Positions 1-64,000 of a DNA stretch of 64,000 nucleotides are shown here, in pieces; the stretch's first letter is position 1; each line of letters opens with the position of its first letter. The notes beneath the pieces are model-generated. The model was not told the origin of the DNA. It ran no database searches and saw nothing but the letters and a program-made list of their open reading frames with translations. The stretch covers positions 1 to 64,000 of the forward strand of contig JNEU01001110.1 of the NCBI GenBank assembly GCA_000697475.1, in the 5' to 3' direction. The DNA is from Lichtheimia corymbifera B2541. Taxonomy: Eukaryota > Mucoromycota > Mucoromycetes > Mucorales > Lichtheimiaceae. The translations under genes were made by a program, and so were the position numbers.

Positions 1-2045
1 GATACATATAGTTTATTCTTTTATTACTGCTACCAAAATAAAGATCACAAAGAAACTATATAACCAAACGGATCAGGTATCTTAAAGAGCCAACGGGTAT
101 CATTGCGTCATTGTACGTTGGTTGCTGCCATCAGAAACATTCCCATCCTTGATCCCAAATCCGTTGCTGCATGATTTGCCTCGAGTATCCGCATTCATCC
201 ACGGCGCGTTCCATCTTGTCATTTCGATCCAATCCACCATCCTCTGCCATATGTATCCACGTGATAGGATTCATCCTTCCTGTTGACGACGTGCAAAGCA
301 GCTCATCCATCCATCATAACCATTGTAGATCCCAATAAGAAAGAGCCCATCCTAGTCATCCTTTGTTGGTCATTTTCCATCGCAGCTCAACCAGGTGAAG
401 ATTGCTTGTATTGCGGTGTACTTGATAGCTGATATGGTATCATCCATAGGAACCCGTATGCATCAAAACAAGTTGCTACATGCAAATAAAGCTGCTGCTA
501 TACAATGGTTATTTGATGTTCGCGTAAAAAAAGGCTTTACGGCAGGGTTGCTGCAAGTAACTTGAGACAATGGAGTAAAAGACATTGATAATGGCAACTG
601 CTGCTACATTTGGTCACCGTAGAAAAGTGTGCAAGAACGTGTGTAGTAGAGTGACAAGGCTGTGAACGCTGTTTGTGACAATGGAGTAAAGACATCGCTA
701 ATAGCAATTGCTGGAATGAATGCTTTACGTTTGGTTGACGTTAAAGGAGTGTGTTGTGTCAAAAGACGCGCGTGTTGTAGTACTAGTGGGGTGCACACGC
801 CATGGACTTGCCATTCAGTCATAGACAATCAGATAAAGACAGTCGTAGCAAGGACATGATGGGTTGGAGCAGGACAATGGTTTGCAGGTCGTAGCTGTAC
901 TTGAATGGGGCAACAGTTGACAATGGGAGCAGAGGCAAGAAGTTGGGAGTGGGAAGAGGTGGAAATTAAATATCAGGCACTGTCAGACATATCCATGCAC
1001 ACTGTAAATTGATCCATGATCTTTGAGATTGCTCACCTTGACCCCAAACTTGCACACAAGGTGCTTCTGGACATGCCGAACAACTTTGTCTTAATAACGA
1101 ACCCTTACTTCATTTACAAATTTTGAATGGGAGGGTATAATGTGGGGTTTACTATGGTGGATGGAAATTCCGTACCCCGCCCGGATTCTTGAAATGTCAT
1201 CTAATATGCATTATCTTGGGATTGCCTACCTGGAACTTGAAACTTGGTAAGAAGGTTCTCTGAGTCATGCTGATCAACTCCATTCATTTAAAAACCGTAT
1301 ACTTCATTATGATATTTTATGAATCGGACGGTCCAAATATAGGACGATCGGAACGCAAGTAGGGTGCATAGTGCACACCCCCGCGCTTGTCCACCTCCAT
1401 TGTGAAACTTGGTCAGACCAGTGGGCTTCGACATGCTGATCAACTCCATTCATATTAAAGTCGCAGGCTTCATTGTGAGAATTAAAATGGGAGCGCCGGA
1501 CGATGAACAGACGTGAATATATGTAGGTTGGACGACCCCATGACTTGAGATTCCCTTTCTCAAAGACGAAACTTTCACACAAGGTGCTCGCAGGCATGCT
1601 GATCATTTTCATTCTCATAAAGACCTCATGCTTCATTTGAAAATCTTGAATGGTATGGTATAATGTGGGATTCACTATGACCGACGGAAATTCCGCACCA
1701 GCCCAAATTCATGAAATGTCAATTACTATGCATTACCTTGGGATTCCCACCCTCGAACTTGAAACTTGGTAAGAAGGTTCTCTGAGTCATGCTGACCAAT
1801 TCCATTCATTTAAAAATCATATGCTTCACTATGAGAACTTTGAATGGGGATAGAACGGACGAAAAGATATACAGGGTGGACGGCCCCATGACTCGAGATT
1901 CCCTTTCTCAAAGATGAAACTTTTCACACAAGAGATGCTCTAGGACATGCTGATCGATTTCGTTCTCATAAACCCTCCATGCTTCATTATAAACATTTCG
2001 AGAAACAGGTACCTGCATGTTTTACTGTAATGTGAGCGTGATGGA
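1..2045 (+). repeat. Dispersed 2-kb repeat, copy A (cut by window edge)
   Basis: The sequence reappears in reverse at 54417-56451 (copy B) and, more diverged, in the same orientation at 59085-60975 (copy C). Bases 1-550 match copy B at roughly 98% by eye; the rest is nearer 80-85%. It has two parts. Part one (1 to about 1000) is non-coding and contains short internal duplications around 560-730. Part two (about 1040-2045) is six tandem divergent modules; the 'CATGCTGATCA'-like box of each lies near 1072, 1266, 1432, 1595, 1789 and 1946. Matching begins at base 1, so the left boundary may lie outside the window. No terminal inverted repeats, transposase or reverse transcriptase were seen, so a non-autonomous element or a subtelomeric-type repeat are both possible. 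Confidence 0.9.
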
Positions 2046-2977
2046 GCTGTTTGATGTTTACTGATTGTGTCGAGCGCACTAATATAGACAAAGTGAAATA
2101 GGATGTGGTGGTTACACACACATTTTTGACAGGTTGTTGCACATGTATAGGATGACATCCGCCTTTAGGTGGCAAGTGTGCCTTTGTAGCGCACATGTAG
2201 ATATAAACACAGCGAATGATTTGTGATAGCAGGTTGATGTCAATTGTTATGTTCGCTAACTTATCCATGTCAGGGCCTGATTGATTATGCACATGGACCA
2301 CAACAATGACAAGGCTCTTTGTTAGAGAGCCAGAAATTGTGCGTGGCGGCAATCCCATGAATCCATCAGCCCATCGCTATTCCCAACAGAAATCTATGCC
2401 TCTTTTTCCCTCTTTGTGAGCACGGGAATACCTACCCCCGCGCATGTAATAGAAGAAGGATCATGCTGTCGCTCGTTATTGTACGCTCTCATATAGCTCT
2501 CTTTGTTTCATCATACCACTTTTTACTTGCTGACGGCTTCAAAGTCCAAGTTGATGAGCAGCAGGATGGGTGTTCTCCTTTTTAAGTGATCCATGGGCTT
2601 ACACTTGCGATGATTTTCAGAGTTCCATTGTTGTCATTGTGATACTGTATCTGGCTCTTTCGATACATTACAGTGACCCAAGACGTTCTTTTGGTCGTTG
2701 GATGCTGGACAAAGAAATGAAATTGTTCACCATGGATGTGTGGATGCGAGCGTCCTTATAGTGGGCTGACAGCTAATACTCTTTCTAATCCAGTAGATCA
2801 CGGATGAGATATTAACAAGCTCTTATTTACACATGCACAATGCCCATATCAAACAACGAATAAAGAGTGCCCAATTTCTCCATGCCCTCTAGTTTAACAA
2901 AGCTCACATATATATCAAGGATGGGTGATTGTTGTGTATAATGCGTGTGTTGTATTAAGCTTTTCTTCACAAGAAAA
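2046..2977. other. Gap between copy A and RPT3, no gene seen
   Basis: About 930 bp without a recognisable gene. Short open frames here have no family resemblance and no conserved motif. The right end holds the 3' flank of RPT3. Bases just after 2000 still resemble the first bases of the array unit found near 60930, so the repeat may fade out here rather than stop sharply. Confidence 0.5.
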
Positions 2978-4432
<1,455 letters not shown>

Positions 4433-4972
4433 TGGAGACGTGTATAAAGAGGAGAGAAGAACGCGCGTTCACACTGCGGAAAATGAATCCCATTTACGGG
4501 CGACATGAAATCAAATGAATCGCTGGTTACCAAGCAACAGCTCCCTGCTCCCTATCATTGGACTTCCCCTTTGGTATACGTAATTCATAGAGAAAGAGTC
4601 GTTTTATTCTTAAGATAATAAAAGTGGGCATCATCATTCCAACTCTATAACTACTTGTATCTATTTGGTAACCTCTTTTATCTTTAGAATAGGAAGCATT
4701 GCAATGTTACCCCTCTTTGATCAAGCAATCCAATTGACCCCACACTCCTAACACCCCATATATATATTATCTCATCAACATATAATAACATCATGTCGTG
4801 TAACAAGGATTTGCTCGTTGTTGTATTGAGTGATTGTCATGGAACAAACGCACACCACTTGGTATGTGATATCAACATTCTGTGCGTCTTTATGGTGCTG
4901 TGTGAGTAGGTTTGTATGAGCGAGAGTAGAGATGTCAAATGAGGAGAGGCGTGTGTGAGAGTGTGTATGTGT
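4433..4972. other. Intergenic RPT3/SEM1 spacer
   Basis: 540 bp holding the RPT3 promoter and the SEM1 3' flank, both genes being on the minus strand. It is A+T rich in the middle (about 4560-4800). No coding signal or RNA gene was recognised. Confidence 0.6.
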
Positions 4973-5345
4973 TTATGCAGAGCCAGTCTTTTGTAATTCG
5001 GCGCTAGATGGATGATAAAAGTGAACATGAGCCAAAGTGGACATTTGAAAGAAAAACGATGCATGATGATACATACCGTAGTTGCTTTGAGAAATCATCC
5101 TCGATATCATCGTCATCCCAGTTATCCTCCCAAAAGTGTGAGTCGTCCTTATCCTCTTCAGCTTCAGCCCAGTCTACAAATGAACATGGAGATCAGAGAC
5201 CTTGGTCACGATGACGCTATACGGATGACGTACCTTCGGCAGCGAATTCCTCAAACTCGTCGTCTTCTTCAAGAGCACCTAATTGAGGCACGTCCTTTTG
5301 TGGCTGATCGCCGTTTTGTTCTTGAGGTTTGTGAGGAGGTGACAT
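4973..5345 (-). CDS. SEM1: 26S proteasome subunit Sem1/DSS1 (Rpn15)
   Basis: Sem1/DSS1 is a tiny acidic, mostly disordered protein of the 19S lid that also serves in TREX-2 and recombination complexes. Three exons (5345-5234, 5173-5077, 5003-4973) give 79 aa. The protein shows the diagnostic acidic and aromatic blocks: '[10 protein letters not shown]', then 'DWAEAEED', then '[20 protein letters not shown]', then 'RAELQKTG'. Phases match at both introns (1 and 2). The short exons hide it from simple frame searches. It sits about 540 bp from RPT3 on the same strand. Its ATG is 189 bp from the ATG of the divergent alpha-MPP gene, so the two probably share a promoter region. Confidence 0.95.
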
Positions 5346-5485
5346 TTTGTAAAGTGGGAGAGAGAGTTTGAAAGAGAGAGTGAGGGAGAGAGAGAACGCG
5401 TATGCTGGGTCTGTGTGTGTGACGCTCTCTGCTTCTCTGCTCTGGCTAATTTACTCAAGCCCAGCTGGTGCGGAAGTACGGATGG

Positions 5486-5493
5486 TATAAAAA
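5486..5493 (+). promoter_or_regulatory. TATA box of alpha-MPP gene
   Basis: TATAAAAA lies about 42-49 bp before the ATG at 5535, a plausible core promoter spacing for a short leader. It is within the 189-bp divergent region shared with SEM1. Confidence 0.5.
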
Positions 5494-5534
5494 GCTCAGC
5501 TCTTTTCAGTTACGATCGCTTACACTTTTCCTCA

Positions 5535-7328
5535 ATGTCGTCTCGTCTGTTGCATTCAGCCACTAAAAGAGGTCTCAAGTCTCTTGTTCCTCGTAAACCT
5601 CTTTTGAACACGTCGATTCTAAAGCGATCGGAAGCCACACTAAGCAACCCTTCAGAGGTATGTGTGCAAATGCTACTAAAGCAGCAAGCTTTTGTTATTT
5701 CAAGGTGGTAACCATATATATCTTGCATAGTTTCCAACCCATGTTCAAGAGTATTCCAAGAGCTCGCCTGGTTTATGCAAAGTGACGACATTACCAAATG
5801 GTATCCGAGTTGCCTCTGAGAATACCCCTGGTCATTTTGGTGCAGTGGGTGTTTATATGGATGCCGGTAGTCGATATGAAACCGAAAAGACGAGAGGTGT
5901 CAGTCATATTCTGGATCGTTTGGCATTCAAGGTATACTATACTGGTGGGGGAAATGTTATATATATACTCATACATGTTCTTTATGATAGAGTACCGCCA
6001 ATCGTAGTGCTGATCAAGTAGTGGAAGAATTGGAGTCATTGGGTGGCAATATTATGTGTTCTTCATCAAGAGAATGCATGATGTATCAATCGGCTATTTT
6101 CTCTCAAGACTTGGACCGTGTCATGTCCCTTTTCTCTGATGTTATTCTACGACCCAACATTGAACCTTCCGAAGTGGATGAGCAACGTATGACAGCCATG
6201 TATGAAATCGAAGAGATTTGGTCAAAGCCTGAAATGATCCTCCCTGAAATACTGCACACGGTCGCTTATCAAGGCAACACGCTCGGCAATCCGTTACTTT
6301 GTCCTCCTGACAACCTTGCTACCATGTCACCTGATCTCATCAAGGATTATATGAAGGATTGGTATAGACCAGAGCGTATGGTGATTGCAGCTTGTGGTGC
6401 AGAGCATGATCAAGTGGTGCAACTTGCTTACAAGTACTTTGGTGACGTTCCAAAGTCAAAGGAGTTGTTGGATTCGGTTGGGACACACAATGAAGCACTT
6501 CGACTACAAGCAGCCAATGCCGAAAAAGCAGCCAACAAGCCATCGCTTATGAAGTCCTTATTCAAATCATCTTCAGCTGGCAACCAGGCTCAAACACCAT
6601 ATGAACTTGCAACCCAACCAGCACTTTATACGGGTGGATCCACTTTTCTGGATGCCGGTGTGGATGCACCATTGACTCATGTCTATGTCGCCTTTGAAGG
6701 TCTTTCGATTAACGATCCCGACATTTATACGCTTGCAACCCTCCAAATCCTTCTTGGCGGTGGTGGATCTTTCTCAGCAGGTGGTCCCGGCAAGGGCATG
6801 TATTCACGATTGTTTACCCATGTTTTGAATCAGCACTATTGGGTTGAATCATGCCAGGCATTCAATCACTGCTACACTGATTCCGGTTTATTCGGTATTG
6901 CTGGATCATGTCGTCCCGAATATGCCAACGCATTATTGGAAGTTATTTGCCGTGAATTGGATATGGTTTCTCGATCCGATGTGAACGAGTACTTGCGGGT
7001 CAATGATCAAGAATTAAGCCGTGCCAAGAACCAACTCAAGAGCTCCTTGCTAATGAATTTGGAAAGCAGAATGGTACAACTCGAGGATCTTGGTCGACAA
7101 GTGCAAGTCCATGGTAAAAAGACGGGTATCGACGAAATGTTGGAGAACATTGATCGCGTCGACGTATCCGAGTTACAACGTGTGGCGTCAAGAATTGTTC
7201 GTGGAGCAGTTGGCATATCAACCGGTGGCTCTGGAAAGGCATCTGTGGTCATTCAAGGTCAACTGCGTGGTCTTACCGATGTCAACAAGGTCATTGAAAA
7301 GTATGGTCTTGGAAGCGGACAACAATAG
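5535..7328 (+). CDS. MAS2: Mitochondrial processing peptidase alpha subunit
   Basis: Alpha-MPP holds precursor proteins while the beta subunit cleaves their presequences in the mitochondrial matrix. Exons 5535-5657, 5731-5931 and 5991-7328 give about 553 aa. Residues 1-40 are basic and Ser/Thr/Leu-rich with almost no acid, as in a mitochondrial presequence. The M16 region begins at '[16 protein letters not shown]'. The zinc motif is degenerate ('HILDRLAFK' instead of HxxEH), as expected for the non-catalytic alpha subunit. The glycine-rich substrate loop '[19 protein letters not shown]' is at about 364-382 and is diagnostic of alpha rather than beta. A Lys/Ala/Ser-rich insertion at about 285-310 looks variable. 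Exon 2 could instead start at 5761 (acceptor CCAAG), which shortens the protein by 10 residues in frame; I prefer the TAG acceptor before 5731. Confidence 0.95.
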
Positions 7329-7654
7329 AATACCTATCTCTCTCTATCTCTTTATCTCACTTTGTACAATCATCCCATATATACAAAACTCGCACATGCA
7401 CCCTCCTCCCCAATAAAGCATTATTGTAGACTATCCATTTAATACAATTTGTCAATACAATGCACAAGTGTCTATGGTGAATATATGTGGAGTAAATCAG
7501 AGTCGGACCTGCACGACAAAGCGTAGGCAGGCAGCTATCACCGAGTGGACATCCCACATCTCCTCTCTCTCTCACACGTCCACTTTTTCTTTTTGTTCCA
7601 GCCCACACCCCTCACCTCCCCTTCGACTCCATATTCACCAACCCCAAAAGTCCA
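7329..7654. other. Intergenic alpha-MPP/HDAC spacer
   Basis: 326 bp containing the 3' flank of alpha-MPP and the promoter and leader of the deacetylase. It is pyrimidine-rich just before 7655 (about 7550-7620). No other feature was seen. Confidence 0.55.
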
Positions 7655-10557: not shown

Positions 10558-11956
10558 CGTCATTCGAATCGAATAGTTAGCATATATGAAATGATTTGCA
10601 AGGATACATAAAATTGTTACATGAAACTAGCTGTAAGGGATATGTTGTGCAGTGCATAGCATTGGGAGGAATCTTTTAATATGATGTGCTATTGTGAGGT
10701 CGTCATTGAACGTAAAAGAACGCCACAAAGCCCCATCGTACCACCATGTGGATGAAATGCAATGGTGGGTGGGCGCTTAAAGAATCTCCTCATTGGTCAT
10801 CATGCGTATGGTTATGCACATGAATGAATATCATTTAACTTTCATTTCTTCAAAATAGCAGATCTTGTTTTTGGGATCACGTTACTGCAGTACAAAACGT
10901 GCTGATGGACAATGCGGATTCCTTTTTACTCCATTCATCCATACTCTCTCTGTGTGTATGCACATAGACTAACCTCCTTATTATAACTTTAGAACGCGAA
11001 AACTTGTTCATATGCCAAGGGCGCCACCCCACACACGGTTTGTAAAGGAAGCATGATTCGTGACCAGCAGCTTATGCCTACATACAATTCCCTGACTCCT
11101 CGGTTGGTTACGAAATGACCGTGGGATGATGGAGCAAAGGGAGGAGACTTTTTTTCAAATCGTTTCAGATCGTGTATGTAGTAGGAAAAAGATATAGTGT
11201 GGATGTACGTGTGTATAGAGAAGAAGGGGGAAGATGATGGTGCGTATAGCAAAAAGTGGTGGTTAAGGTTTGGGATGGTGAGGGAGAGATCAGGGAGGCC
11301 CATGGACAAATTAGGAAAGATCTCCGTTCTTAACTCTTCTCTTTTGCTTTCCTTGGCTCTTTTGGCCCCTAGAGCGACGTCTTTGCATTGCAGTCGGCTG
11401 TTTGTGCGTATGTGGGTGTCTCTCTCACACACACCATCACGCTATGTTTCGCCAAACGGAACACGGGATACCGATGATCGGCACAAGAACCCGTGTCTAA
11501 ACAAGGTGGGTCAACGTTTGTATAGCATATGCATTTCGAATATTTTCTGCAAGAGAAAAAACTGTACAACGATGTGCATATCGTAAGCGGGTTATTTCTG
11601 GTGAACTGTCACCTGCATTAGCATAACAAATAAGAAGCACTTGGATAATGTAGGTGCAGGGAGATAAGCTCATTACTGTGCATCTATTTGGGGAAGTAAG
11701 GGAGTCAATGGTAAGAAGGGGGAAAGACGTGGTGGGTGTGGAATAGGCATAAGGGGTGGTTGGGGTAAGATTTATCATGCTTTTACACGGACATAGCAGT
11801 TCCCTTTTTTTCCATCCAAAGGCGGATACAAACATCATTTATAAAGAGCTTCCATTCATGCCACTTGCACTTATTTTCCCCCATCTTAATTTTTCTCCAC
11901 ACACACACACACACACACGCACGCACATTTTCCAATCCTTGTAATTTCATTCACCT
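10558..11956. other. Intergenic region before the Ran1-like kinase
   Basis: About 1.4 kb between the deacetylase stop and the kinase start. Short frames on both strands (for example near 11000-11580) have no recognisable domain and low-complexity composition. The right end is the kinase leader with a CA microsatellite. I see no RNA gene here. Confidence 0.5.
11898..11926 (+). repeat. CA dinucleotide microsatellite
   Basis: An uninterrupted run of CA followed by CGCA variants lies 30-60 bp before the kinase ATG, probably in its 5' leader. Confidence 0.85.
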
Positions 11957-13276: not shown

Positions 13277-14215
13277 AGCAGGTTCTCTGGTGGTCCCTTT
13301 AATCGATCTCTTCCTCCCAAATGATACATGCACATATACTACAGAATTCTTAAATTGTATAATAACTTGCCTCCTTTTCTTCCTGTGAACGAGTACTATA
13401 ATAAATGGCTTCTTCCTCCTCTACTACTACTACAATGGCATTATTGCTTACGTTGCTTTTAGGAGCTCACATTTATTACGTTTGGTCAACTAGAGTGGCG
13501 TCCTTATTGTAAGCCGGAGTGACATGTGAAATCTACAGAGGTGAACGCCTCTCTCCTTCTCCTGGTGGGCGCAAGATCCATAAATTGACGATCTGCATCT
13601 TGCATTATTTCATCGATCTTGGGGGGTTGCTGGAGAACAATGGGGAGATAGAAGGCGATATTAGAAAACTTCCATTGATTATTCAATGTATCCAATGACA
13701 CTATCACTGAACCTACAAGGCACATTGCGCGGCCTTTTCAACACAATGGTATCTTCATGCTGCTCTTCAACAAAGGATATCTGTCATTTGACATAATGTC
13801 ATTGGTATTATTAAGCTCCAGGGTAAAAAGGAGAAAGGATAGCTCTGGATATTTTGGGTGTCTGGACCTGTCATTGTTTCAAAAAGGATGTTGTTGGTCA
13901 CTCCTTGAAAGATATGGCAGATCTATAATCTGTAAAGCCAATGACACTACCCAAAGCATGGAGGCCAATGGTTACCATTTCTAGTTGAATACCGAGAACA
14001 ACCTTAAATTAGCTCGGTAAATAAGGGATGATCTAATCTTTAGTCATCCTCTTGAGCCTTGGATGAGCCCATTTTGATCATAATGCAAATCAAAGCATTG
14101 TAATAGGACAGCACCAAGAGGTATCATATCGGGACACTCATTGATTTTGCTACAGTATATACTTGACGATGTTTGTAACATTCGTTTATATATAAAAAGG
14201 TTGTTTTGGAGTATG
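13277..14215. other. Intergenic kinase/dehydrogenase region (convergent)
   Basis: About 940 bp between two convergent genes. Apart from the possible 35-codon frame listed separately, I recognise nothing. A reverse frame at 13504-13725 has no known motif. Confidence 0.5.
13405..13512 (+). CDS. Possible 35-aa membrane microprotein
   Basis: An ATG-to-TAA frame of 35 codons: a Ser/Thr-rich start followed by a strongly hydrophobic stretch (MALLLTLLLGAHIYYVW) and a basic end, the pattern of a single-pass membrane peptide. It sits 128 bp after the kinase stop and could simply be 3' untranslated sequence. There is no family recognition. Confidence is low. Confidence 0.2.
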   Translation: MASSSSTTTTMALLLTLLLGAHIYYVWSTRVASLL

Positions 14216-15612: not shown

Positions 15613-15854
15613 TAGGGCGGTTGGTGGAAAAAGAAAAAAGGAACCAGTGGAAAGGTTTTCCAAATGCATGTGTGTTTTTATATAACCATGCAAAAAGTGA
15701 TGCAAGACGCACGTTGCACCACCGCATTTTTTCCCACCCATCATCATGGCCAACAACAACATCATCTTATAATCACAAAGCAATAGCAATTTGGTTCATT
15801 TAACACAAACAATGATATAACTACTAATTTATAAATGGTATGCGTTTGGAGGGG

Positions 15855-25333: not shown

Positions 25334-25380
25334 GATTGAATGTTGTTGAGATCAGCTTCCTGCTACAAACACACGCGTCC

Positions 25381-34777: not shown

Positions 34778-34813
34778 GGGGGGGGGGGGAGGGGGGGGGG
34801 GGGGGGGGGGGGG
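34778..34813 (+). repeat. Poly-G tract (36 nt, one A)
   Basis: Twelve G, one A, then twenty-three G, with potential for G-quadruplex structure on the plus strand and an i-motif on the other. It lies about 300 bp before the zinc-finger ATG and about 170 bp before its TATA box. The exact length may be a sequencing estimate. Confidence 0.9.
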
Positions 34814-36671: not shown

Positions 36672-39600
36672 TTATTGGAACTTGGCACTATTCTTGCGCA
36701 CCCAAGCTTCGACTACAGCAGCATCCCGTTGAAGCCATTTGGCGTTCACCTTGGCGGATTCAAGTGCTTGTTGAAGAGGGCGTTCATATTCCTTGGTTTC
36801 CTTGTTGGCAAAGAAGGCTTCAATTTCTTCCAATCTTTCAAATGTAGTGAAACCACCAACGACAGAACGCACTGCAGAACCAAACAAGCTGAGAGATTTG
36901 GCAAACTTGGCATGAAGAGCGTCATAATTCTCCTTGAAGTATTCCCAGAAAAGATCACGAGCATCTGCATTGACACTCAACCTAAGGATGATGATGATGA
37001 TCAGCATACATCATTCATGCTAATGGATTTCTTTTCCACTGGATTCCCACTTTCTCCTTAATACACTTACGATCGGAAGACATAGATGGAATCTTGGCCA
37101 CGTACTTGCTTATCATCCATCGACATGTTGAGGTATCGCTTGATAAGATCAGGGCACTTGGCACCGCCGAGAGCATTCAGTGCAATCATGCGTTGATCCG
37201 TTGGGAGCTTCTCGTCCAAGTAGATCTTTTGAATGGCCTCCCACACCTTGGTTTCTTCTTGCTCATTCTCAGCCGTCAACAAAACAATGCCATAAACAGG
37301 ACCACGCATGTTTGGATGCAATGCGTCATTGCTACCATCAACAAACTTCCAGAAACGCTTCTTGGCTTCAGCAACAGTCTCAACATCATTGGATCGGCCA
37401 GCATTTGTCAATGCAAGAACACGTAGAATCGTTGTCAAGTAGTCCTCATTTTCGGCAAACTCCCAACCAAGTCGGTGAGCCACGGGAGCAAATAAGCTGC
37501 GACGCAATGCCTTGAGCGTGTTAACCACCTCCTCCGGTTGCTTGGCCCATACACCGAGAATGCCACTCAAATGAGCGCTCAATTGTGACCAAACGCTAAT
37601 AGACAAAAAGTGATGAATACATTGGCTGCATACTTTTTTGATCCACTTACAAGTATTCCTTTTCATTGGTGAATGCTTGAGCCAATTCCAAAAAGGCGTC
37701 TGTGGATTGCTCACCGCTCACACACAAGTTTCCAGAATCGGCAAGCAAGCCAACACGGTCGGCAGCGTTGGCAAGCATACCATCGGATCCCTTTTTGATC
37801 TCGTCACCCAATCTGCGGACAACTTCAATAGGATAATTGACACGGTAGACGGCTGTTTGTCCAGCATTCAACTTGAACAATCCACTCTCTGGCACAGTGA
37901 ACTTTTGGGACTTTTCGGTCAAGGTGTATGACTCGATCTTTTCAGGAGTGAGGATACCAAGAGGATTCCACCAGACAGTGCTATATTCCAATTGTCAATA
38001 ACCAACTTTAAATAATAGGGATGATTCACCTACGTGTCTTCCTTTGCTTCCAAATCACCGGTAGAGAGATAGCGAGATTGTGTAACTTCAATAGTGTTGT
38101 TGCCGAGCTCTTCAACCTTGAGCACAGGATACTTGAATAAAAGATAAAAGATGTTAGTCAGGGCATTTGGGACATGCTACTATACTTACGCCAACACGCT
38201 TAGTCCAGAGTTGCATGAATTGCGAAACATCTTGACCGGCTTCCTCACTCAATGCCTTCCACAAGTCTGAAGTAGATGCGTTGCCAAGTTTATGTCTGTG
38301 GAGATAACGACGAACGCCTGCAAGGAAAGTGTCGACACCGAGCCACGAGCTAAGCATGCGGATAACGCTTGCACCCTTGTAATAAGAGATGGCATCAAAG
38401 ATCTGGTGGATCTCTGCAGGGTCGTTGACTGCCACTTCAATGGGATGAGACGAACGCAATGCATCCAAGCTCAAAGCACGGGGCATATCTTCATTCACAA
38501 AGGAGGTCCAAATGTTCCATTGAGGGAAAATGTGATCGACAGCAAGCCAACCAACCCACGTAGCGAAACCTTCATTCAACCAAAGATGCTCCCACCACTC
38601 CATAGTGACCTAGACATCATAACAAAAGTGAGGCCAAGAACGAGAATGCCCTTTGTCATATCCTTACCAAGTTGCCGAACCATTGGTGGGCAAGTTCGTG
38701 ACACACAGTATAAGCGGTGCTCTTTTTGAAAACAATGGAGGATGATTTTTCATCGAAAAGAAGCTAATCCCATTGTGTTAATAAGCCTTGGACGCTAACA
38801 ATGATACCATTCTCATAATACTTACTGCAACGTTTCGGTAAGTGACAAGACCCCAGTTTTCCATTGCACCTAGTAATGAGAATCGTGTTGGCACATGTCT
38901 TGTTTTAGCTACACCATCCATCACTTACCAGCTTCAAAATCAGGAATGGCCACCATGTCAATCTTTGGCAAGGGATAAGGTTCGCCAAAGACATTAGCAA
39001 AGTACTCCAAAGCAGCAGTGGCGACATTCAAAGCATGACGACCTTGTTCTACGGAACCAGGCAAAGCATAGACACGCGTCTTGATGGGATGACCATTGTG
39101 TTCACCCGAGGTGTAAGCTTCAATGTATTCGAATGGACCCACGACAAAAGCGAGAAGATAGGTACTCATAGGAGGGGTGGTGGCATACTTGACTTCCTTG
39201 AGCTTTTGGTTGCTAGCACTTGCACCTTCAGTCTTGCCTTCGGTTTTGCCTTCAGTCTTGCCTTCGGTCTTGCCTTCAGTCTTTCCTGACAACTTTCCAG
39301 ATTCCAAATATGGTTTCTCCGAGGTCACATTCATGTTGGACAATGCAGTCAATTCAGATGGGACAACAAGTGTAACATCAAAAGTGGCCTTGAGAGCAGG
39401 CTATAACGGGGCAAGTAAGGGTCAACGTTTCATCGCTCCTTTTTTTTTCCACGCCACCCACAACAAACAATACTATACCTCATCCCAGCAAGGGAATGCA
39501 CGACGAGCATCAGTAGCTTCAAATTGTGTGGTTGCCAGATACCTATAGAAAGAGAATATAAGTATGCATGCATATACACACATCAGAAACAACACTTACT

Positions 39601-52832: not shown

Positions 52833-53010
52833 TGAGATGGTACCTGAAACAACCGGTAGAACTACCCCATATGATGTACCAATAAAGGCCATCAACCATG
52901 ATCGGAGGTTTCACTTTTATATCCTATGCTTATTTGGTGCCTGGGAAATGGGCAATTTTGTTTTGCTCCACACTTTTTTCTTTGTTGATCACTTTTGATG
53001 AGCCAAAAAT

Positions 53011-54249
53011 ATGCAGGGGAATCATAGCAACAGCAATGTCACATCACATCACAATGACAGAAGAGTACAAAGATCTATTAACGATGATGGCATCAGCAAT
53101 TCTTCAACAGCAACAACAACCAGCAGCACTACAGATACCCATAGCGACGTTCTTCATTCATCAGATACACTTGGTCGATTACCGATAGAGATCCTTGGTT
53201 TGATCCTTGAACAGCTGACAAAACATGATATCATTGAATGCATGTCAGTGTCAGCATCCTGGCGAAACCGACTTGCATGCTGCTCAGCACCTTGGCGAGA
53301 GATCATCATGATACAAAAGGAGCAAATACATGCTATCAGCCCATGGATAACGACAGTGCATCATTTTGTGAAGGATATGACATTCTCTTGTGAAACCACG
53401 TTGATCTTTACAAAGGTCATGTCTTGGATCACTGATGGCTACTTTCCTCATTTATGCTCGCTCCAGATCTACAGTGAGTAATATAAACATCCTTTCTTAA
53501 TCCGGCCAAGTAGTGAAACTTAATAACATATGCTCTTCTATCGAATGTACATAGAATGTACCGAAGATGACGTTGATCCTTTGGTGGGCGCTCTGCAAAA
53601 GACGGGATATCGTCTACGCAAGCTGCTGTTGGAGTTTATGGTGGACCTTATACCTTATCAAGATGTAATGCGTATGTGTCCCAACCTTACCGAGTTGTGC
53701 TATTATACTGCCCTTGACAACCCAAATCCGGTCGCCTTGACGATACCTGCCAATCCACAGCTGATTCATCTTGAGCTTCATGTGAGAGAGCTCTTTTTAC
53801 CTGATCTGGAGCATGTCCTACAAGCATACCCCCATATCCGTTATCTCTCGGTGCAACGCTGTGACAAGGTGGCTTTACGGACGATCCATGAACGTTGCCC
53901 AAAGCTTGAGTTTTTGAGCTTTAATGCTGCGCCTTATCTTTTACCGTGGATGCGATTGCTTGGAAAGGAAACGGCTACATCCATTGGGCTCTCACGTGAT
54001 ATAAGGTCGTGTAGACGTTTGGGGATCAAAACGGCCGAGCTATTGGCAAGCGAGTTCCTTGATCACTTTCCACATGGCATGGCTAAATGGACACCGACTT
54101 TAAATGTGGGACGGTTACAGGCCTTTCGTCGCGCCTATGGTAGAGATATGCATCCTAAAATAATAGCAGCTGTATTCCCCGGTGACGACGATATAACCAT
54201 AGCAGAGATTAGTGCCCAATTCCTATCAAAAGCATTGCTGTCGTATTAA
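53011..54249 (+). CDS. F-box protein with LRR-like C-terminal part
   Basis: Two exons (53011-53473, 53555-54249) give 385 aa. A Ser/Thr/Asn-rich start is followed by an F-box at about 54-95 ('LGRLPIEILGLILEQL', 'MSVSASWRNRLACCSAPWRE'). The remainder has loosely spaced leucine-rich segments ('CPNLTELCYYTA', 'NPQLIHLELHVREL', 'YPHIRYLSVQRCDKV', 'CPKLEFLSFNAAPY'), as in the large F-box/LRR families of Mucorales. It probably acts as an SCF substrate adaptor; the target is unknown. It starts only 180 bp after the Sey1-like stop and is the last gene before the repeat zone. Confidence 0.85.
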
Positions 54250-54416
54250 AAGATGTTATGAATATTGACTAACCGTCCAGTTTGATCATATACCTTGAAT
54301 GTTGGTTTAATAAGACCAATGGGATAGCACATTTACAGCCCTTACAATAAGCTTGCACGCTTACGCTATCCCATTACAATCTGGTAGTGTTCTTGGCCGT
54401 TCATATCTCTCCCGCT

Positions 54417-56451
54417 CCCATTCAATTATTCATAATGAAGGATGGACGTTTTATGAGAATGAAATTGATAAGCATACCCTGGAGCATCATCTGTGAAAGT
54501 TTCAAGTTTGATATAGGCAATGTCAAGGTCACGGACCATCAACCCTGCTTATCTTCTCATCTGTTCTATTCCCATCCGATATTTTCGCTATGAAGCATGC
54601 AGTTTTTATATGAATAGAGTCGATCAGCATGTCCTAGCGGATCGTCTGACCAAGTTTCAAGTCTTAGATGGGGAATCCCAAGGTAATTCATAGTAGCTGA
54701 CATTTCATGATTTTGGTCGGGTGCGGAATTTCCGTCCAACATAGTAAATCCTATATTATACCCTCCCATTCAAAGTTCTTGAATGAAGTATGAGGTCTTT
54801 ATGAGAACGAAAATGATCAGCATGCCTGCGTGCACCTTGTGTGAAAGTTTCATCTTTGAGAAAGGGAATCTCGAATCATGGGGACGGCCAACCTACATAT
54901 ATTCACGTGCGTTCATCGTCGGACGCCCGCATCAAAATTCTCATAATGAAGCGTATGGTTTTTATTTGAATGGAGTTGATCAGCATGTCGAAGCCCACCG
55001 TCTGACCGAGTTTGACGATGGAGGTGGGCAACCGCAGGGGTGTGCACTATGTACCCTACTTGCGCTCCTTCCGTCCTATATTTGGGCCGTCCGATTCATT
55101 GAATCATCATAATGAAACATGCGGTTTTTAAATGAATGGAGTTGATCAGCATGTGCGAGAGTACCTTCTGACCAAGTTTCAAGTGCGAAATGGGGAATCC
55201 CAAGAAACTACATACTAATTGACTTTTTCATAAATCCGGCGCTTTCCCAATTTTCATCAGTCATAGTCAATCCCACATTATGCTCACCCTTTCGAAATTT
55301 TCAAATGAAGTGTGGGTTCTTTATTAAGACAAAGTTGATCAGCATGCCCTAGAGCACATTGTGTGCAAGTTTCAGGTTTGAGAAAGGTAATCAAGGTCAT
55401 GGATCAATTTTACAGTGTGCATGAATTTGTATGAAAGTGCCTGACCTATTTAATTTCCAGCTCTTCCACTCCCGGCCTCTTGTCTCTTCCTCCATTCTCT
55501 ACTGTTGCCCCATTCAACTACAACTACTACCTGCGGACGATTGTCCTGCTTCACCCCATCATGTCATTGCTACGACTGTCTTGATCCTATTGTCTTTGAC
55601 TGAATGACAACTCCATGGCGAGTGCACCACACTACACCACCCGCGTTTCTTGACACTGCACGTTCTCTTGTGCACTCCTCTACCACAACCAATCGTAACA
55701 GCATTCGTTCCAGCAATTGTCATTAGCAAGGCCTTCACTCCATTGTATCAAACAGCATTCGCAGCCTTGCCACTCTACTACAACACACGTTCTTGCACAC
55801 TTTTCTACGGTGACCAAACGTAGCAGCTATTGCTATTAGCAAGGTCTTTACTCCATTGTCTCAAGTTACTTGCAGCAACCCTGCCGTAAAGCCTTGTTTT
55901 TACGCGAATATTAGATAACCATTGTATAGCAGCAGCTTTATTTGCATGTAGCAACTTGTTTTGATGCATACGGGTTCCTATGGATGATACCATATCAGCT
56001 ATCAAGTACACCGCAATACAAGCAATCTTCACCTGGTTGAGCTGCGATGGAAAATGACCAACAAAGAATGACCAGCAGCCGGATGAGAAAATCATAGGAT
56101 GGGCTCTTTCTTATTGGGACCTACAATGGTTTATGATGGATGGATGAGCTGCTTTGCACGTCGTCAAAAGGAAGGATGAATCCTATCATGTGGATACATA
56201 TGGCAGAGGATGGCGGATTGGATCGAAATGACAAGATGGAACGCGCCGTGGATGAATGCGGATACTCGAGGCAAATCATGCAGCAACGGATTTGGGATCA
56301 AGGATGGGAATGTTTCTGATGGCAGCAACCAACGTACAATGACGCAATGATACCCGTTGGCTCTTTAAGATACCTGATCCGTTTGGTTATATAGTTTCTT
56401 TGTGATCTTTATTTTGGTAGCAGTAATAAAAGAATAAACTATATGTATCAA
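54417..56451 (-). repeat. Dispersed 2-kb repeat, copy B (inverted)
   Basis: The reverse complement runs parallel to copy A from base 1 onward. 55900-56451 is almost identical to A 1-550, apart from a roughly 20-bp insertion near 56060-56090 and a few substitutions. 54417-55880 matches at clearly lower identity. Its module part is at 54417-55400. Its outer end is at about 56451, where the sequence continues CAACTACAATATG. It lies 170 bp after the F-box gene. Confidence 0.9.
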
Positions 56452-59084
56452 CTACAATATGTTTGAAGCTGCGTTCTACCGCTGACTTGTCAAAAGATAT
56501 GAGTCTAGTTTACAGGGAGTGCTTGCTGCTATTGTCCACGATCCAGTAAGGTGCCTTGAAGCAAGTAACGGCAGAGCATATGCAGCCAAGATCAAAAGGA
56601 TGATGCTGTAATCTTCTAATTATATGATCCACGGCTATTGCTTGGCTTGGTCGATAACTCGTATACACCCAGGACTGCAAAGGATACTGCCATATACGGA
56701 CACCAAGGTACAGAAGGGATCAAGGTGGGTCGATTGCTGCGATGGGCGTGTCAACAGATCCCATATGCTTACAATGCTGCTTGCGTCTCTAGATCTACCA
56801 TATACATCCAGTGGTATCCATGGATACGTTGACGAGTGCACCAATAGGGCTTGCCATCGCGATCTTGAATCCACAGAAATTCCAAAGCTTTTAGTCACTC
56901 ATGCCGCAAGCATATAGCAAGATCTTGGTGTCAATCAATAATAAAAGGGCTGAATGCACGCAATGGAGGAAGAAAGGGGGAAATGTTAACGATCTGGCTG
57001 ACTACTGCTTGCTCCTGTTGTATCATACCCCACATACTGTCCTCCACTTTACCTTGTGATCCAAATAAACTTGCATATATTTTATTGATACCATATTAAT
57101 CACACGACCTTTCTCTATCTTTTGCAGTATTACTCGTGTAAAAAGGATGGGATTTAGTGGAGATAGCTATGGACAAAGAAAGGTGAAAATGGCGTGTCAA
57201 TCAACTAAAAACGCGCTTCTTCACACGTCTCTCAAACATATGCCCCACGATATATACATCATATTGATCGTACAGCTTTTCTCTATCGTTTGATATATCA
57301 TTTGTTCAGAAACGATGAAAAAATGCAACCCAAAGACTCGGGTCCGGGAACTATAAACGCGTTTTTAAGCGTGTTCCATCAATATAACCCCACCCAGCGT
57401 TGGTCTCATGTTGACCGCAGCACTTTTATCTTTCATTTGAGGTATTACGTGTTTATAAAAGCTCAAGTTTATTATAATTTGTATTCAAAAAGACTAAAAC
57501 TAAGAGGCAATTGGTTTCCACAAGTCTACAACAACTCGTGTACTCACAGGAATGACCACGAGAAGGTTTGCCTCATCATTCCCGCCTTTAGCCAAGGACA
57601 CCAACCTTGACCAAGGCACAGAGAAAGCAGCACTCAACCAGAACTTAAAAGAATTGCAAAGAGAAAGGTCATACTTAAGCCAACCGCCCTTGAACAGAAC
57701 ATAAAGAACTGCTCAAGAACGATCGCACTTAAGTAAGCCTCCCCTAAACAAACCTTTAAGACCTGGAAGGTGCCACAAACTCTGTTCGCGGAATTCGACA
57801 GCTAGAAGTCTTATAACCCATCTGCTCCCGCTCGCCAGTGCTCTAAAGAAAAGAAAAGGAAAAAAAAGAAATGGGGAAACGCCCTTCTTTTATATCTTTA
57901 AATTCCAATTTGACTCCCGCTCTGACGTTGGACTGGCTACTGTGACCTTTTTGGGACTCTAATTTCATTGGCTGTCAATTCAGCGTGTAGGAATCAGTAG
58001 TAAAGGTATGTTTTATAGGTGTGTAAAGGGTACTTTTTGAAAGAAAAGGTGTAATGTGCATGGTGAAACATAGCAGGGAAGCGGAGACATAGCTTGTCTT
58101 TACTTGATATAGTATATTTCTGCGCACAGACCAGGGGTTCACGACACACATTCCGCAGGTTCATTTGTGTTACTACTCAGCTTGTCCGATTCATGGTACT
58201 TTATTTCCGATCTCAGGGACCATTCAAGTGCATCAGCAAAGGGATAAGAGTGTGCGTGATAGTATTGGATAAAAACAACAAAGGTAAACAATCCCCTCGA
58301 TCAACCACTACAGCGTGTACACAAGTAGAGTTGACGGTACTACATCAAGTACTACTACGACTAACTCTAGTGTATGTTACCAGCCACCACCAAGAGACAA
58401 CTGCGATCCAGTGCTTTTATGATTCCGGTTTACGTTTGTGTTGCGTTGATTGCCGGACCTTCCTCGATCTAATGGAGCCGAGATCAGGCACCTCCACGCT
58501 GTTTGGGACACTGAGTTTGTATGACGGAGCATACCTGTGCCTTCATCCGTCCATTAGCGGACTACGTTAGGATTGCCGTATGCCTCCATCATCAAAAGCT
58601 TTGGTAAATGTTTTAGATTACGATACTGATTTCTTTTCTCACATCATGGTACTGTGGCTACTTGCACCCCACAAGACCAGAATCCTTCCTATGGCATTTT
58701 CTCAAGCGGAATATCTTAAAAGTGCATCGTATTGAAACATGCTTTCACTATTAACGGTCCCACCTTTGTTTCATCCAATGAGGTGTAATCCACAAGCAAC
58801 AACAAGAAAGGAATATGCTAGCTAAATCCAAGTGGAAAATAAACGATGCTTGTAACTTCTTCTTTGCCATGGTCGTCTTCATCGATTAAAGTCGCCGTCA
58901 TTATGAGAATCATCCAAGCCTTAGCTACAAACGAGTGGGATCTTGCATGCTTCCTCCTCAAGTATCCATCATATTGCCAAGAGAAACATAATAAGGGAAC
59001 AGTGTTGTATATTGAATAAAATACGTGCGAATCACATCGAGTCAGCAGGGATCATTGTGCTATTTATTCTTGGTTGCTGCAGTC
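56452..59084. other. Unassigned segment between repeat copies B and C
   Basis: About 2.6 kb flanked by oppositely oriented repeat copies. The longest frames (57290-57610 and 58094-58570, both +) have irregular composition and no motif of transposases, integrases or reverse transcriptases that I can recognise. The stretch around 57600-57850 is purine-rich. It may be the internal part of a decayed element or simple intergenic DNA. Confidence 0.4.
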
Positions 59085-60975
59085 ATAAGCACCCTTCATC
59101 CATGATTGCAAAATAGCTGCTGCATGCATTGACTTGAGTATCCCAATAGCGTACATGGCTGAAAAGCACCTTTCACCAAGATATCATCCATTTGGTCAAT
59201 CCAATCCATCCACCATCATCCTCAGCCGTATCCACGTGTTCGTTCCTGCGGACGACGTGCCAAGTAACCAAAGCAACATTCCAGGATTCCACATTACTGC
59301 ACTTGATTGCATCCATCCATAAAATCCAATATGTTGGTTAAACATAGCCATGTGATTGCTGCTGATGTGCTCCCTTTTCGCATCCAGCTGTTGGTCTATC
59401 GCATTCTTGGTCTTCCGTCGTAGCTCAACCAGATGAAGATTGCTTGTATTGCGGTGTACTTGATATGTGATATGTGATATGTGAGCCCATTCACCGGAAT
59501 TTGTATGTACCAGAGTAAGTTGCTGCAAGTAACTTGAGACAATGGAGTAAAAGACATTGATAATAGCAACTGCTGCTACGTTTGGTCGCGGCAGAGGAGT
59601 GCACAAGAGCGCGTGTGTAGTAGTAGAGTGACAAGGCTGTGAACGCTGTTCGAGACAATGAAGTAAAGACCTTGCTAATAGCAACTGCTAGAATGAGACT
59701 GTTACGATTGGTTGTAGCAGAAGAGTGTACAAGGGAACGTGCAGTGTCAAGGAATGCGGGTGTTGCTGCAGTGGGGAGTACACGCCATGAAACTTGACAT
59801 TCTGTCAAAGACAAAAGGATCAAGGCAGTTGTGGGATTGGCATGATGGGTTGAAGCAGGGCAATCGTTCGCAGGTGGTAGTTGTGCTTGAATGGGGCAAC
59901 AGTTGAGAATGGGATAAGAGGCAAGAAGTTAGGAGTGGGAAGAGCTGGAAATTAAATCTGTCAGGCAGTCAGACATATCCATATACACTGATATCAATGC
60001 ATGATATTGGGATTGCCTGTTTCGATCCTCAAACTTTCACACAATATGCTCTAGGCCATGCTGAACAACTTTGTATTAATAAAGAACCCACACTTCATTT
60101 GAAAGTTTTGAATGGGAGGGTGTAATGTGGGGTTTACTATGACGGAGGGAAATTGGGAAAGCGCCGGATTTATGAAAAAGTCGATTAGTATGTAGTTCCT
60201 TGGGATTCCCCATCTCGCAATTGAAACTTGGTCAGAAGGCACTCTCGCACATGCTGATCAACTCCATTCATTTAAAAACCGCATGGTTCATTATGTACAT
60301 TTTGAATGCCGGCCAGCCCAAAAGTAGGAGAAAGTAGGGTAGACGCTCCTGCTCACCGAGATTGCCCACCTCAAACCTGAAACTTTCACACAACATCCTT
60401 TCGACCATGCCGAGCAATTTCGTTCTCATAAAGTCCCCAGAGTTCATTATGAAAACATTGAATGTAGGAGAGACGACGAATGGATGGTAACATAAATAGG
60501 GTATACGGCCGTGCGCGCCGATATTGCTGGTGGGGACGTCGAAACTTGGTCAGGAGGTGCTCTCGGTCATGCTGATCAACTCCATTCATTTAAAAACCGC
60601 ATGGTTCATTATGTACATTTTGAATGCCGGCCAGCCCAAAAGTAGGAGAAAGTAGGGTAGACGCTCCTGCTCACCGAGATTGCCCACCTCAAACCTGAAA
60701 CTTTCACACAACATCCTTTCGACCATGCCGAGCAATTTCGTTCTCATAAAGTCCCCAGAGTTCATTATGAAAACATTGAATGTAGGAGAGACGACGAATG
60801 GATGGTAACATAAATAGGGTATACGGCCGTGCGCGCCGATATTGCTGGTGGGGACGTCGAAACTTGGTCAGGAGGTGCTCTCGGTCATGCTGATCAACAT
60901 CGTTCTCACAAAGCCTCTACACATCACTATGGAGATTTGGAGAAACAGGCGCCTTTATGTTTTTACATATGCTGT
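59085..60975 (+). repeat. Dispersed 2-kb repeat, copy C
   Basis: Same orientation and order of parts as copy A: 'GTTGCTGCAGTCAT'-type start, the 'CAACCAGATGAAGATTGCTT' stretch near 59427, the 'ACTTGAGACAATGGAGTAAA' block near 59530, then tandem modules from about 60030. It is more diverged than A and B are from each other. Its module part carries an exact 318-bp tandem duplication, and its right end passes into the array at about 60930-60975. Confidence 0.85.
60250..60898 (+). repeat. Exact 318-bp tandem duplication
   Basis: 60250-60567 and 60568-60885 are identical by eye, and the match runs on for about a dozen bases. For example the string GGCCAGCCCA occurs at 60311 and 60629. Each unit spans two of the basic modules, so unequal exchange between modules could have made it. 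A collapsed or duplicated assembly is the alternative. Confidence 0.9.
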
Positions 60976-63900
60976 AAATGTGATGCTATATGGAGAGTGG
61001 TGTTTGTTCATTGTCAAGTAGATTGACCCTGATAGAGCCGAAGACGCAGACGGACTCCTTTGTGCAACACAGCTCATTTGCATGATACTTCACAATGAAC
61101 AAAGACCACTTGTCATATAGCATCGCGCTTACGGCATATGTAAAACATAAAGGTGCCTGTATCTCTAAACTTTACAATGAAACGTGGGGTCCTCAATCGA
61201 ACAAAGTTGCTCGGCTGGGTCAAGCGCACCTTGGGTGCAAGTTTCACGATCGTCGTGGCCATTCTCAGATTTACCCAATGTCACCACCAGCCAAAGTTGA
61301 AAAAAAAAATTCAAGAGGTCGACCCACGATCCACTTTGGCTGGTGGTGACATTGCGAAATCTAGGATCGGCGCGGTTGATCGTGAAACTTGCATCCAAGG
61401 TGCGCTTCACCCCGACGAGCAATATTGTTCGATTGAAGACCCCACATTTCATTGTAGCTTTTTTAGTTATGGATATCTTTATGTTTTTACATATGCTATA
61501 AGCGTAATGCTATATGGTAAGTGGTGTTTGTTCATTGTCAAGTAGCTTGACTCTGATAGAGCAGAAGATACGCAGGGACGTGCTTGTGCAACACAGCTCA
61601 TTTGCATGATACTTCGCAATGAATAACACCACTTGCCACATAGCATCACGGTTCCAGCATATGTAAAAGCATAAATGTGCCTGCAGCTAGAATTGGCAAG
61701 CTTTATCATGAAACATGATTGACGAGGTGCGCTCCACCCAGCCGAGCAACATCGTTCTATGAAAGATCCCATGTTTCATTGTAAAGTTCTGAGATAAATG
61801 CACTTTCTCGTTTTTACATATTGCTGAAAGCATGATGTTATATGACAAGTGGCGTTTGTTCATTGTCAAGTAGCTTGACTCTGATAGAGCAGAAGGTGCG
61901 CAGGGGTGTGCTTGTGCAACACAGCTCATTTGCATGATACTTCACAATGAACAAACACCACTTGCCATATAGCATCATGCTTCCACCATATGCAAAATCG
62001 TAAATGTGCCTGCATCGAGGATCGGCAAGCTTGATCGTGAAACCTCGATTGAAAATGGGCGCTCAACCACGATGAGCAATATTATTCTATGAAAGATTCC
62101 ATGTTTCATTGTAAAGTTTTGAGATAAATGCACTTTTTCGTTTTTACATATGCTGAAACCATGATGCTATATGACAAGTGATGTTTGTTCATTGTGAAAT
62201 ATCATGCAAATGAGCTGTGTTATACAAGCACGTCCCTGCGTATCTTCTGCTCTATCAAGGTCAAACTACGTCACAATGAACAAACACCACTTGTCATATA
62301 GCATCATGCTTTTCAGCATATATAAAAGCAGAAAGTTCATTTATCTCTAAACTTTACAATGAAACATGGGTTCTTTCATAGAACAATATTGCTCGTCGTG
62401 GTTGAGCGCACCTTGTCAATCATGTTTCCCCGATCAAGCTTGCCAATTCTAGATACAGGCAGTTTTACGTTTTTACATATGCTGAAACCGTGATGCTGTC
62501 TGTTAGTGGTGTTATTCATTGCGAAGTATCATGCAAATGAGCTGTGTTGCACAAGCACGTCCCTGCGTATCTTCTGCTCTATCAGAGTCAAGCTACTTGA
62601 CAATGAACAAACACCACTTACCATATAGCATTACGCTTATAGCATATGTAAAAACATAAAGATATCCATAACTAAAAAAGCTACAATGAAATGTGGGGTC
62701 TTCAATCGAACAATATTGCTCGTCGGGGTGAAGCGCACCTTGGATGCAAGTTTCACGATCAACCGCGCCGATCCTAGATTTCGCAATGTCACCACCAGCC
62801 AAAGTGGATCGTGGGTCGACCTCTTGAATTTTTTTTTTCAACTTTGGCTGGTGGTGACATTGCGAAATCTAGAATCGACGAGGTTGATCGTGAAACTTGC
62901 ACCCAAGGTGCGCTACACCCAGGCGAGCAAATTTGCTCTATGAAAGAGCCCACGTTTCATTGTAAAGTTTAGAGATACAGGCACCTTTATGTTTTACATA
63001 TGCCGTAAGCGCGATGCTATATGACAAGTGGTCTTTGTTCATTGTGAAGTATCATGCAAATGAGCTGTGTTGCACAAAGGAGTCCGTCTGCATCTTCGGC
63101 TCTATCAGGGTCAAGCTACTTGACAATGAACAAACACCACTTGTCATATAGCATCACGCTTACATCATATGTAAAACATAAAAGTGCCTGTATCTCTAAA
63201 GTTTACAATGAAACATGGGCTCTTCAATCGAACAAAGTTGCTCGTCCGGGTGAAGCGCACCTTGGGTGCAAGTTTCACAATCAACGTTGACGATTCTAGA
63301 TTTCGCAATGTCACCACCAGCCTCATCGAAAAAAATTCTAGAGGTTGACCTCAAGTTCAACTTTGGCTGGTGGTGACATTGGGTGAATCTGAGAATGGCC
63401 AAGACGATCGTGAAACTTGCACCCAAGGTGCGCTTGACCCAGCCGAGCAACTTTGTTCGATTGAGGACCCCACGTTTCATTGTAAAGTTTAGAGATACAG
63501 GCACCTTTATGTTTTACATATGCCGTAAGCGCGATGCTATATGACAAGTGGTCTTTGTTCATTGTCAAGTAGTTTGACCCTGATAGAGCGGAAGACGCAG
63601 ACGGACTTCTTTGTGCAACACAGCTCATTTGCATGATACTTCACAATGAACAAAGACCGCTTGTCATATAGCATCGCGCTTACGGCATATGTAAAACATA
63701 AAGGTGCCTGTATATCTAAACTTTACAATGAAACGTGGGGTCCTCAATCGAACAAAGTTGCTCGGCTGGGTCAAGCGCACCTTGGGTGCAAGTTTCACGA
63801 TCGTCGTGGCCATTCTCAGATTTACCCAATGTCACCACCAGCCAAAGTTGAAAAAAATTCAAGAGGTCGACCCACGATCCACTTTGGCTGGTGGTGACAT

Positions 63901-64000
63901 TGCGAAATCTAGGATCGACGAGCCTGATCGTGAAACTTGCACCCAAGGTGCGCTTCAGCCCGACGAGCAACTTTGTTCGATTGAAGACCCCACGTTTCAT
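60930..64000. repeat. Array of alternating inverted repeats
   Basis: The array is built from one unit appearing in both orientations in turn. Two kinds of symmetry centre alternate. One is the pair GTCACCACCAGCCAAAG / CTTTGGCTGGTGGTGAC (centres near 61315, 62825, 63345, 63865). The other is a joint with an ATTTGCATGATACTTC-like core flanked by CAATGAACAAA and its complement (near 61075, 61600, 61930, 62210, 62530, 63055, 63630). Segments 61300-61640 and 62510-62850 are perfect inverted copies around a centre near 62075. 61095-61375 recurs directly at 63641-63915. Each unit carries the same 'GAAACTTGCACCCAAGGTGC' core found in copies A-C. The array runs past the window end. Frames inside it are by-products of the repeats. 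Confidence 0.9.

What the first reader, a model, noticed from the sequence alone, without database searches (positions are those of the whole stretch)
1..64000. One ~80-bp module underlies both the dispersed repeats and the terminal array
In copies A, B and C the second half is a run of modules with the order GAAACTT, a variable 25 bases, CATGCTGATCA, about 12 bases, TT-rich stretch, then TTCATTATGAA-like and TTGAATGG. In the array the unit reads GAAACTTGCACCCAAGGTGC, GCCGAGCAAC, TTTGTTCGATTGA, CGTTTCATTGTAAAG in the same order and almost without gaps. I count more than 25 copies in both orientations. The modules fall into two alternating subtypes in copy A. This points to a single modular repeat family that has spread both by tandem growth and by inversion. 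It is not a transposon class I recognise.
Basis: partly seen in the sequence, partly recalled or inferred. Interest (0 to 1): 0.75.

Follow-up and report, generated by a model that had tools for sequence, protein, structure and literature searches.

The report
Palindromic foldback repeat family in fungus
The repeats in this window belong to one non-coding family that occurs hundreds of times in a fungal genome, with inverted arms around a core of long DNA hairpins, much like the foldback elements known from flies, though how it moves is not shown.

Summary
A profile from 16 modules of copies A-C finds 29 modules in the window (18 +, 11 -). The 11 in the array score 26-44 bits; the best in 50 shuffles is 7.2. 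The family is genome-wide (35 Mb, 432 contigs): 508 head, 1199 module and 952 hairpin-centre motifs at up to 1 mismatch, control 0 each. The module is only part of a larger design: a ~1-kb head (H), a ~0.95-kb run of modules (M) and a core of two alternating palindromes. In the fetched loci M faces inward on 29 of the 31 core sides that it borders, giving H>M>core<M<H: foldback architecture. Ten ORFs tested show no Pfam domain above cut-off. The one element read through both flanks (C211) has arms 95.9% alike with unequal outer ends, so shared termini and target-site duplications are not shown. I read it as a foldback-like, non-autonomous repeat whose palindromic core rearranges and grows arrays, closest to Drosophila Tetris. 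Mobility is inferred from dispersal. Alternation of two module subtypes in copy A is only approximate (XYYXYX).

The parts
1..1040 (+). Copy A head (H); the contig starts here
   Evidence: 84.5% identical to copy B over 2,041 aligned positions of 1-1993; genome-wide family
1046..2006 (+). Copy A, six modules, subtypes X Y Y X Y X (M)
   Evidence: HMM hits 65-78 bits; clusters
2003..2141 (+). Copy A tail (T): begins like a diverged half of a hairpin centre; no family match beyond it
54414..55373 (-). Copy B, six modules X Y Y X Y X (M); ends ~165 bp past the stop of an ORF that I read as F-box/LRR (my recognition, no search)
   Evidence: HMM hits; ORF end at 54249
55393..56449 (-). Copy B head (H)
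56450..58980 (+). Spacer between heads B and C, whose outer ends face each other; 12 stretches of 1 kb or more on 11 contigs, this one included. Its last ~250 bp resemble the end of T
   Evidence: between 55900 and 59800, 21 of 28 indels against L066 are not multiples of 3 (recounted)
58981..60010 (+). Copy C head (H)
60031..60943 (+). Copy C, six modules (M), containing a 318-bp tandem duplication
60936..64000 (.). Core array: hairpin units Pm-Pc-Pm' and P2 palindromes in alternation; runs on to about 64422 of the 64774-bp contig
   Evidence: contig end
63412..63796 (.). Example hairpin unit Pm-Pc-Pm', nearly perfect stem
   Evidence: DNA fold -208.2 kcal/mol, mean of 100 shuffles -44.9, z -39
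63791..63937 (.). Example P2 palindrome
   Evidence: DNA fold -46.5 kcal/mol, mean of 200 shuffles -15.7, z -10.7

Best explanation
The window holds three arms and one core of a dispersed, non-coding, foldback-like repeat family. Shown: full elements read arm (H then M) > core < arm (M then H). The core is made of two alternating palindromes, and the short modules are both the tandem repeats of the arms and the stems of the core hairpins. Inferred: copies were first spread by borrowed transposition machinery. Afterwards the palindromic core acts as a hub, where hairpin or cruciform formation, template switching and crossing-over duplicate arms in inverted orientation, swap what lies on either side, and lengthen the core into arrays such as the one at the window end.
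For: Genome-wide dispersal: 508 head, 1199 module and 952 core-centre motif copies, strand-balanced, control 0. Symmetric elements: C211:74353-77815 is a palindrome with arms 95.9% identical over 1.69 kb; L002, L020 (the same C211 locus) and L065 read H>M>core<M<H. Of 82 sides of 41 core runs, 44 have family sequence facing inward (29 M; 8 short pieces of H; 7 the first ~300 bp of U), 6 outward (3 U, 2 short M pieces, 1 T), 18 unannotated, 14 at a locus edge. 13 of the 41 runs have nine core parts, in the order Pc-Pm-P2-Pm-Pc-Pm-P2-Pm-Pc where I read it (L020, L028, L029). Hairpin arms of one unit are more alike (0.907, n=47) than arms in the same locus more than 700 bp apart (0.852, n=281) or sampled pairs from different loci (0.863, n=2908); within-unit identity is higher in 22 of 27 loci, one tie left out, sign test p 0.0015. 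Hub junctions vary: M|M, M|U, U|U, M|T. L043 and L044 are 98.6% identical over 2.46 kb, then one continues as U, the other as a core centre.
Against: No target-site duplication or shared terminus was found. In C211 the right arm ends inside H while the left runs on into U; a deletion could do that too. L002 arms are only 75% identical. Same-locus arms are no closer than different-locus arms, and in 5 of 27 loci within-unit identity is lower. No transposase is linked to the family: 9 MULE and 4 Helitron_like_N matches are at none of the listed repeat positions, but those lists cover only part of the family. L001-L030 were chosen by a core query and favour loci with cores; of 30 loci found with copy A (L031-L060, L031 being copy A itself), 22 have no core run of three or more parts and 15 none at all, within 1.5 kb of the match.
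Confidence: 0.55

Rival explanations
1. A classical non-autonomous foldback TIR transposon still moved by a cellular transposase (Mutator-like or other), with array growth as a side effect, as in Tetris.
For: Long inverted arms with internal tandem repeats, a middle domain, no Pfam domain in the ORFs tested, hundreds of dispersed copies beside ORFs that look like ordinary host genes (my reading, no search). MULE transposase domains exist in this genome.
Against: No common terminus: U-side limits differ between copies. One limit recurs (U33 position 116-119, 8 rows from 7 places), but the sequences outside it still resemble each other in several of these, so it marks the end of the query copy L033, not a shared end. 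C211 arms end at different points. No target-site duplication seen. No MULE at the listed copies.
Confidence: 0.25
2. A complex satellite-like repeat spread by extrachromosomal circles or segmental duplication, with no transposase involved.
For: Head-to-tail joins (L058: M>T>H), varied break points, core runs of 2 to 28 parts, and one block of head-spacer-head copied as a unit to C210, C308 and C152.
Against: Copies lie singly or in small clusters, and a nine-part core recurs in 13 of 41 runs, which suggests unit-wise spread.
Confidence: 0.15
3. A Helentron/Helitron-associated element carrying tandem repeats (HINE-like).
For: HINE elements in oyster carry satellite-like central repeats between flanks (abstract of PMC7492417). 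Four Helitron_like_N matches exist here.
Against: Inverted arms around a palindromic core are not the layout described in that abstract; Helitron matches are not at listed copies. Helitron-type ends were not looked for.
Confidence: 0.03
4. The spacer block with inverted heads on both sides is a centromere core of the kind with inverted flanking repeats.
For: 12 stretches of spacer of 1 kb or more on 11 contigs, non-coding by the tests made, with inverted arms.
Against: The head type that adjoins the spacer occurs at both ends of this 64.8-kb contig, which would put two such cores within 57 kb if the contig start is a spacer break (inference). G+C is ordinary (0.426 against 0.438 for 3000-54250).
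Confidence: 0.04

Closest known systems
Tetris, foldback transposon of Drosophila virilis (PMC4079207; abstract, section 10 and part 1 of section 16 read)
   Same: Long inverted arms built partly of internal tandem repeats, middle domain without coding sequence, rearranged copies, repeats growing into satellite-like arrays, no autonomous partner found.
   Different: Tetris copies show 8-10 bp target duplications; none seen here. Here the arrays grow in a core of two alternating palindromes rather than inside the arms, and module subtypes differ between arms and core.
Galileo and FB elements of Drosophila (as described in the parts of the Tetris paper read; the rest recalled)
   Same: Foldback layout with internal repeats; Galileo recombination is credited with inversions.
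   Different: Galileo belongs to the P superfamily with a transposase; no link to that family was tested here.
HINE (non-autonomous Helentrons) of Crassostrea gigas (PMC7492417, abstract and outline only)
   Same: Dispersed non-autonomous units that carry short satellite-like arrays.
   Different: Here the arms are inverted around a palindromic core; Helentron ends were not looked for.

Membership tests
Foldback TIR transposon | Long inverted arms with internal tandem repeats | tested here: met
   C211/L020, L065, L002
Foldback TIR transposon | Both arms end at the same outer terminus | tested here: not met
   C211, the one element read through both flanks: right arm ends inside H, left runs into U; U limits differ between loci
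Foldback TIR transposon | Target-site duplication of fixed length | tested here: inconclusive
   Outer ends could not be set, so no duplication could be scored; the unique flank of B has no second copy in the genome to serve as an empty site
Foldback TIR transposon | Shares ends with an autonomous transposase-bearing element | tested here: inconclusive
   9 MULE matches, none at listed copies; other cut-and-paste superfamilies not searched
Satellite DNA | Long head-to-tail tandem arrays | tested here: not met
   Core runs of 2 to 28 parts in the fetched loci, with many inverted joins; longer arrays may be lost in contig breaks
Helitron/Helentron non-autonomous element | Helitron-type termini | not tested
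   Only Helitron_like_N was searched
Described structured RNA (Rfam) | Match above gathering score | tested here: not met
   0 matches in the window

The most novel reading that the evidence does not exclude
The palindromic core is itself the engine of spread: a non-coding family that multiplies by hairpin-primed inverted duplication and hub recombination, keeps its two hairpin arms alike by conversion, and acts as a dispersed set of several hundred sites for chromosome inversions in an early-diverging fungus.
Probability: 0.15. Interest if true: 0.75.

Novelty: new variant of a known kind. Interest (0 to 1): 0.5.

Why it matters
If right, a Mucoromycota-like genome carries several hundred foldback-like arms and close to a thousand long-hairpin centres. 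It would be a natural test of how fungi tolerate long palindromes, whether these feed dsRNA into RNA silencing, and whether they cause inversions. It would also add a fungal parallel to the route from foldback element to satellite described for Tetris.

Tried and rejected
Coding origin: no Pfam domain above cut-off in ten ORFs (one match at E 0.2, 12.4 bits against a cut-off of 25); indels in spacer and heads mostly out of frame. Rfam 0 and tRNA/tmRNA 0 in the window. MULE or Helitron host element: no co-location in the partial lists. A sharp outer end of the head at 58981 (35 of 40 hits start at query 22-36) looked like a terminus, but many copies continue outward into U, so it is the join with the spacer. 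A recurrent limit at U33 116-119 was checked and is not a shared end. Empty site for copy B: no second copy of its unique flank. The Y-module 21-mer has 0 exact matches in genome contigs (prokaryotes) and in viral contigs. Papers: six searches on fungal or Mucorales repeats, foldbacks and satellites; rows seen were 15 of 521, 15 of 38, 4 of 4, 12 of 22, 10 of 28 and 10 of 12. None of the rows seen describes this family. Beyond listings I saw the named sections of the Tetris paper, the outline and abstract of the oyster paper and passages of the Lichtheimia corymbifera genome paper PMC4133162, which reports 4.7% repetitive elements for that species. Species of the window not established. Repbase and Dfam were not available.

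Full report
Observation. Blast of the window against itself shows copy A (1-1993) matching copy B (56449-54429) at 84.5% over 2,041 aligned positions, copy C joining the family from about 59,400, and the array as nested inverted repeats from 60936 on. A profile from 16 modules of A-C finds 29 modules, 18 on + and 11 on -; the 11 array modules score 26.1-44.0 bits and the best of 50 shuffles 7.2. Modules cluster into X, Y and an array type; A and B read XYYXYX. Module steps in A-C are 155-193 bp.

What the module is part of. I named the parts H (head, ~1 kb), M (modules, ~0.95 kb), Pm (module form in the array), Pc (219-bp hairpin centre), P2 (147-bp palindrome), U and T (sequences on the far sides of H and M) and S (spacer 56450-58980). 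The window reads A = H>M>T; then B = <M<H, S, C = H>M>, then the array. The stretch 3000-54000 has none of these parts. A Pm-Pc-Pm' unit folds as DNA at -208 kcal/mol against a shuffle mean of -45; P2 at -46.5 against -15.7.

The genome. The window is contig C380 (64,774 bp) of a 34.98-Mb, 432-contig assembly. Threonine synthase hits point to a Mucoromycota-like fungus (best hit 95% identical, unnamed; nearest named Lunasporangiospora and Jimgerdemannia, 71-72%). Motif counts with up to 1 mismatch: head 18-mer 508 (249+259), Y-module 21-mer 1199 (568+631), core-centre 20-mer 952 (484+468); backward-pattern controls 0 in all three. Similarity searches score only 40 candidates and are lower bounds: 235 array matches, 94 matches to copy A.

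Architecture elsewhere. Among the 66 loci annotated (some overlap each other or the window), H>M>core<M<H is seen in L002, L020 and L065; L035 shows M>core<M<H and L051 H>M>core<M. After dropping 11 overlapping loci, 41 core runs of two or more parts have 82 sides: 44 inward, 6 outward, 14 at a locus edge, 18 unannotated. The 44 are 29 M, 8 short H pieces and 7 U, the U being its first ~300 bp, which may itself be an old core. M alone: 29 inward, 2 outward, both of these short pieces. 13 of 41 runs have nine parts; L020, L028 and L029 have the order Pc-Pm-P2-Pm-Pc-Pm-P2-Pm-Pc. L001-L030 came from a core query, so cores are over-represented; of the 30 loci found with copy A, 8 have a core run of three or more parts, 15 none.

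How arms evolve. C211 is a palindrome, 94.6% identical over 3.46 kb in one alignment and 95.9% in its arms. L063 is 99.1% palindromic but lies at a contig end, so an assembly effect is possible. L065 arms are 94-96% alike near the core and 77% further out; L002 arms 75%. Within one hairpin unit the stems agree at 0.907, across P2 0.890, elsewhere in the same locus 0.852, between loci 0.863; 22 of 27 loci show the within-unit excess (sign test p 0.0015). So the pair of stems, not the locus, is what is kept alike. That fits hairpin-based conversion or fresh inverted duplication; the data do not separate the two. L043 and L044 share 98.6% over 2.46 kb and then part, one into U, the other into a core centre: one direct case of a join at the hub.

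The B-spacer-C block. The 2.5-kb spacer occurs as 12 stretches of 1 kb or more on 11 contigs, the window included. C210, C308 and C152 carry it with both heads. Against C210 (L066) the block from 55900 to 59800 has 6-49 substitutions per 300 bp; module bins have 64 and 46 (55000-55600), 35 and 70 (60100-60700), and 110 at 54700, a bin that includes ~80 bp outside the matched range. So modules tend to differ more, but unevenly. Over the whole aligned stretch 37 of 49 indels are not multiples of three; between 55900 and 59800, 21 of 28. The copy-A type of head outer end was otherwise seen only next to the spacer among the 40 candidates scored, so the contig start at copy A is probably a break in another spacer (inference).

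Interpretation. The layout works like a foldback element, and Tetris is the nearest described case. I do not file it as a member: the one element read through both flanks fails the test of equal termini, target duplications could not be scored, and no autonomous partner was found. The steps shown are: shared module, inverted arms around a palindromic core, dispersal in hundreds of copies, varied junctions at the core. Inferred: first spread by transposition, later rearrangement and array growth at the hub. Against it stand the missing termini, the 75% arms of L002, the many arms without a core and the five loci without the within-unit excess.

Novelty. None of the rows seen in six searches of papers describes this family, but long result lists were seen only in part and Repbase and Dfam could not be searched, so a named family is not excluded. 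I rate it a new variant of a known kind: foldback-like, with a core of two alternating palindromes in a recurrent nine-part form.

Noticed in passing
window 34778-34813: A run of 36 bases that is 94% G.
   Followed up: no
window 39225-39287: A 12-bp tandem repeat inside a - strand ORF that I read as an M1-type aminopeptidase (my recognition, no search), giving repeated KTEG.
   Followed up: no
L063 (C226:172000-180984): The last ~4.4 kb of contig C226 is a 99.1% palindrome through a core; it may be real or an assembly effect at a contig end.
   Followed up: partly
L061 1423-1774 (C380:64423-64774): Past the array the contig ends in other sequence with GGTCACC / GGTGACC-like short inverted pieces.
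   Followed up: no
C128:30215-30564: A 118-bp piece of the spacer (query 905-1022) is repeated in tandem there at 95% identity.
   Followed up: no
C84, C391, C73: Three Helitron_like_N matches of near-equal score, each with one TGA and one TAG in frame, suggesting recent duplicate copies of one decayed element.
   Followed up: no
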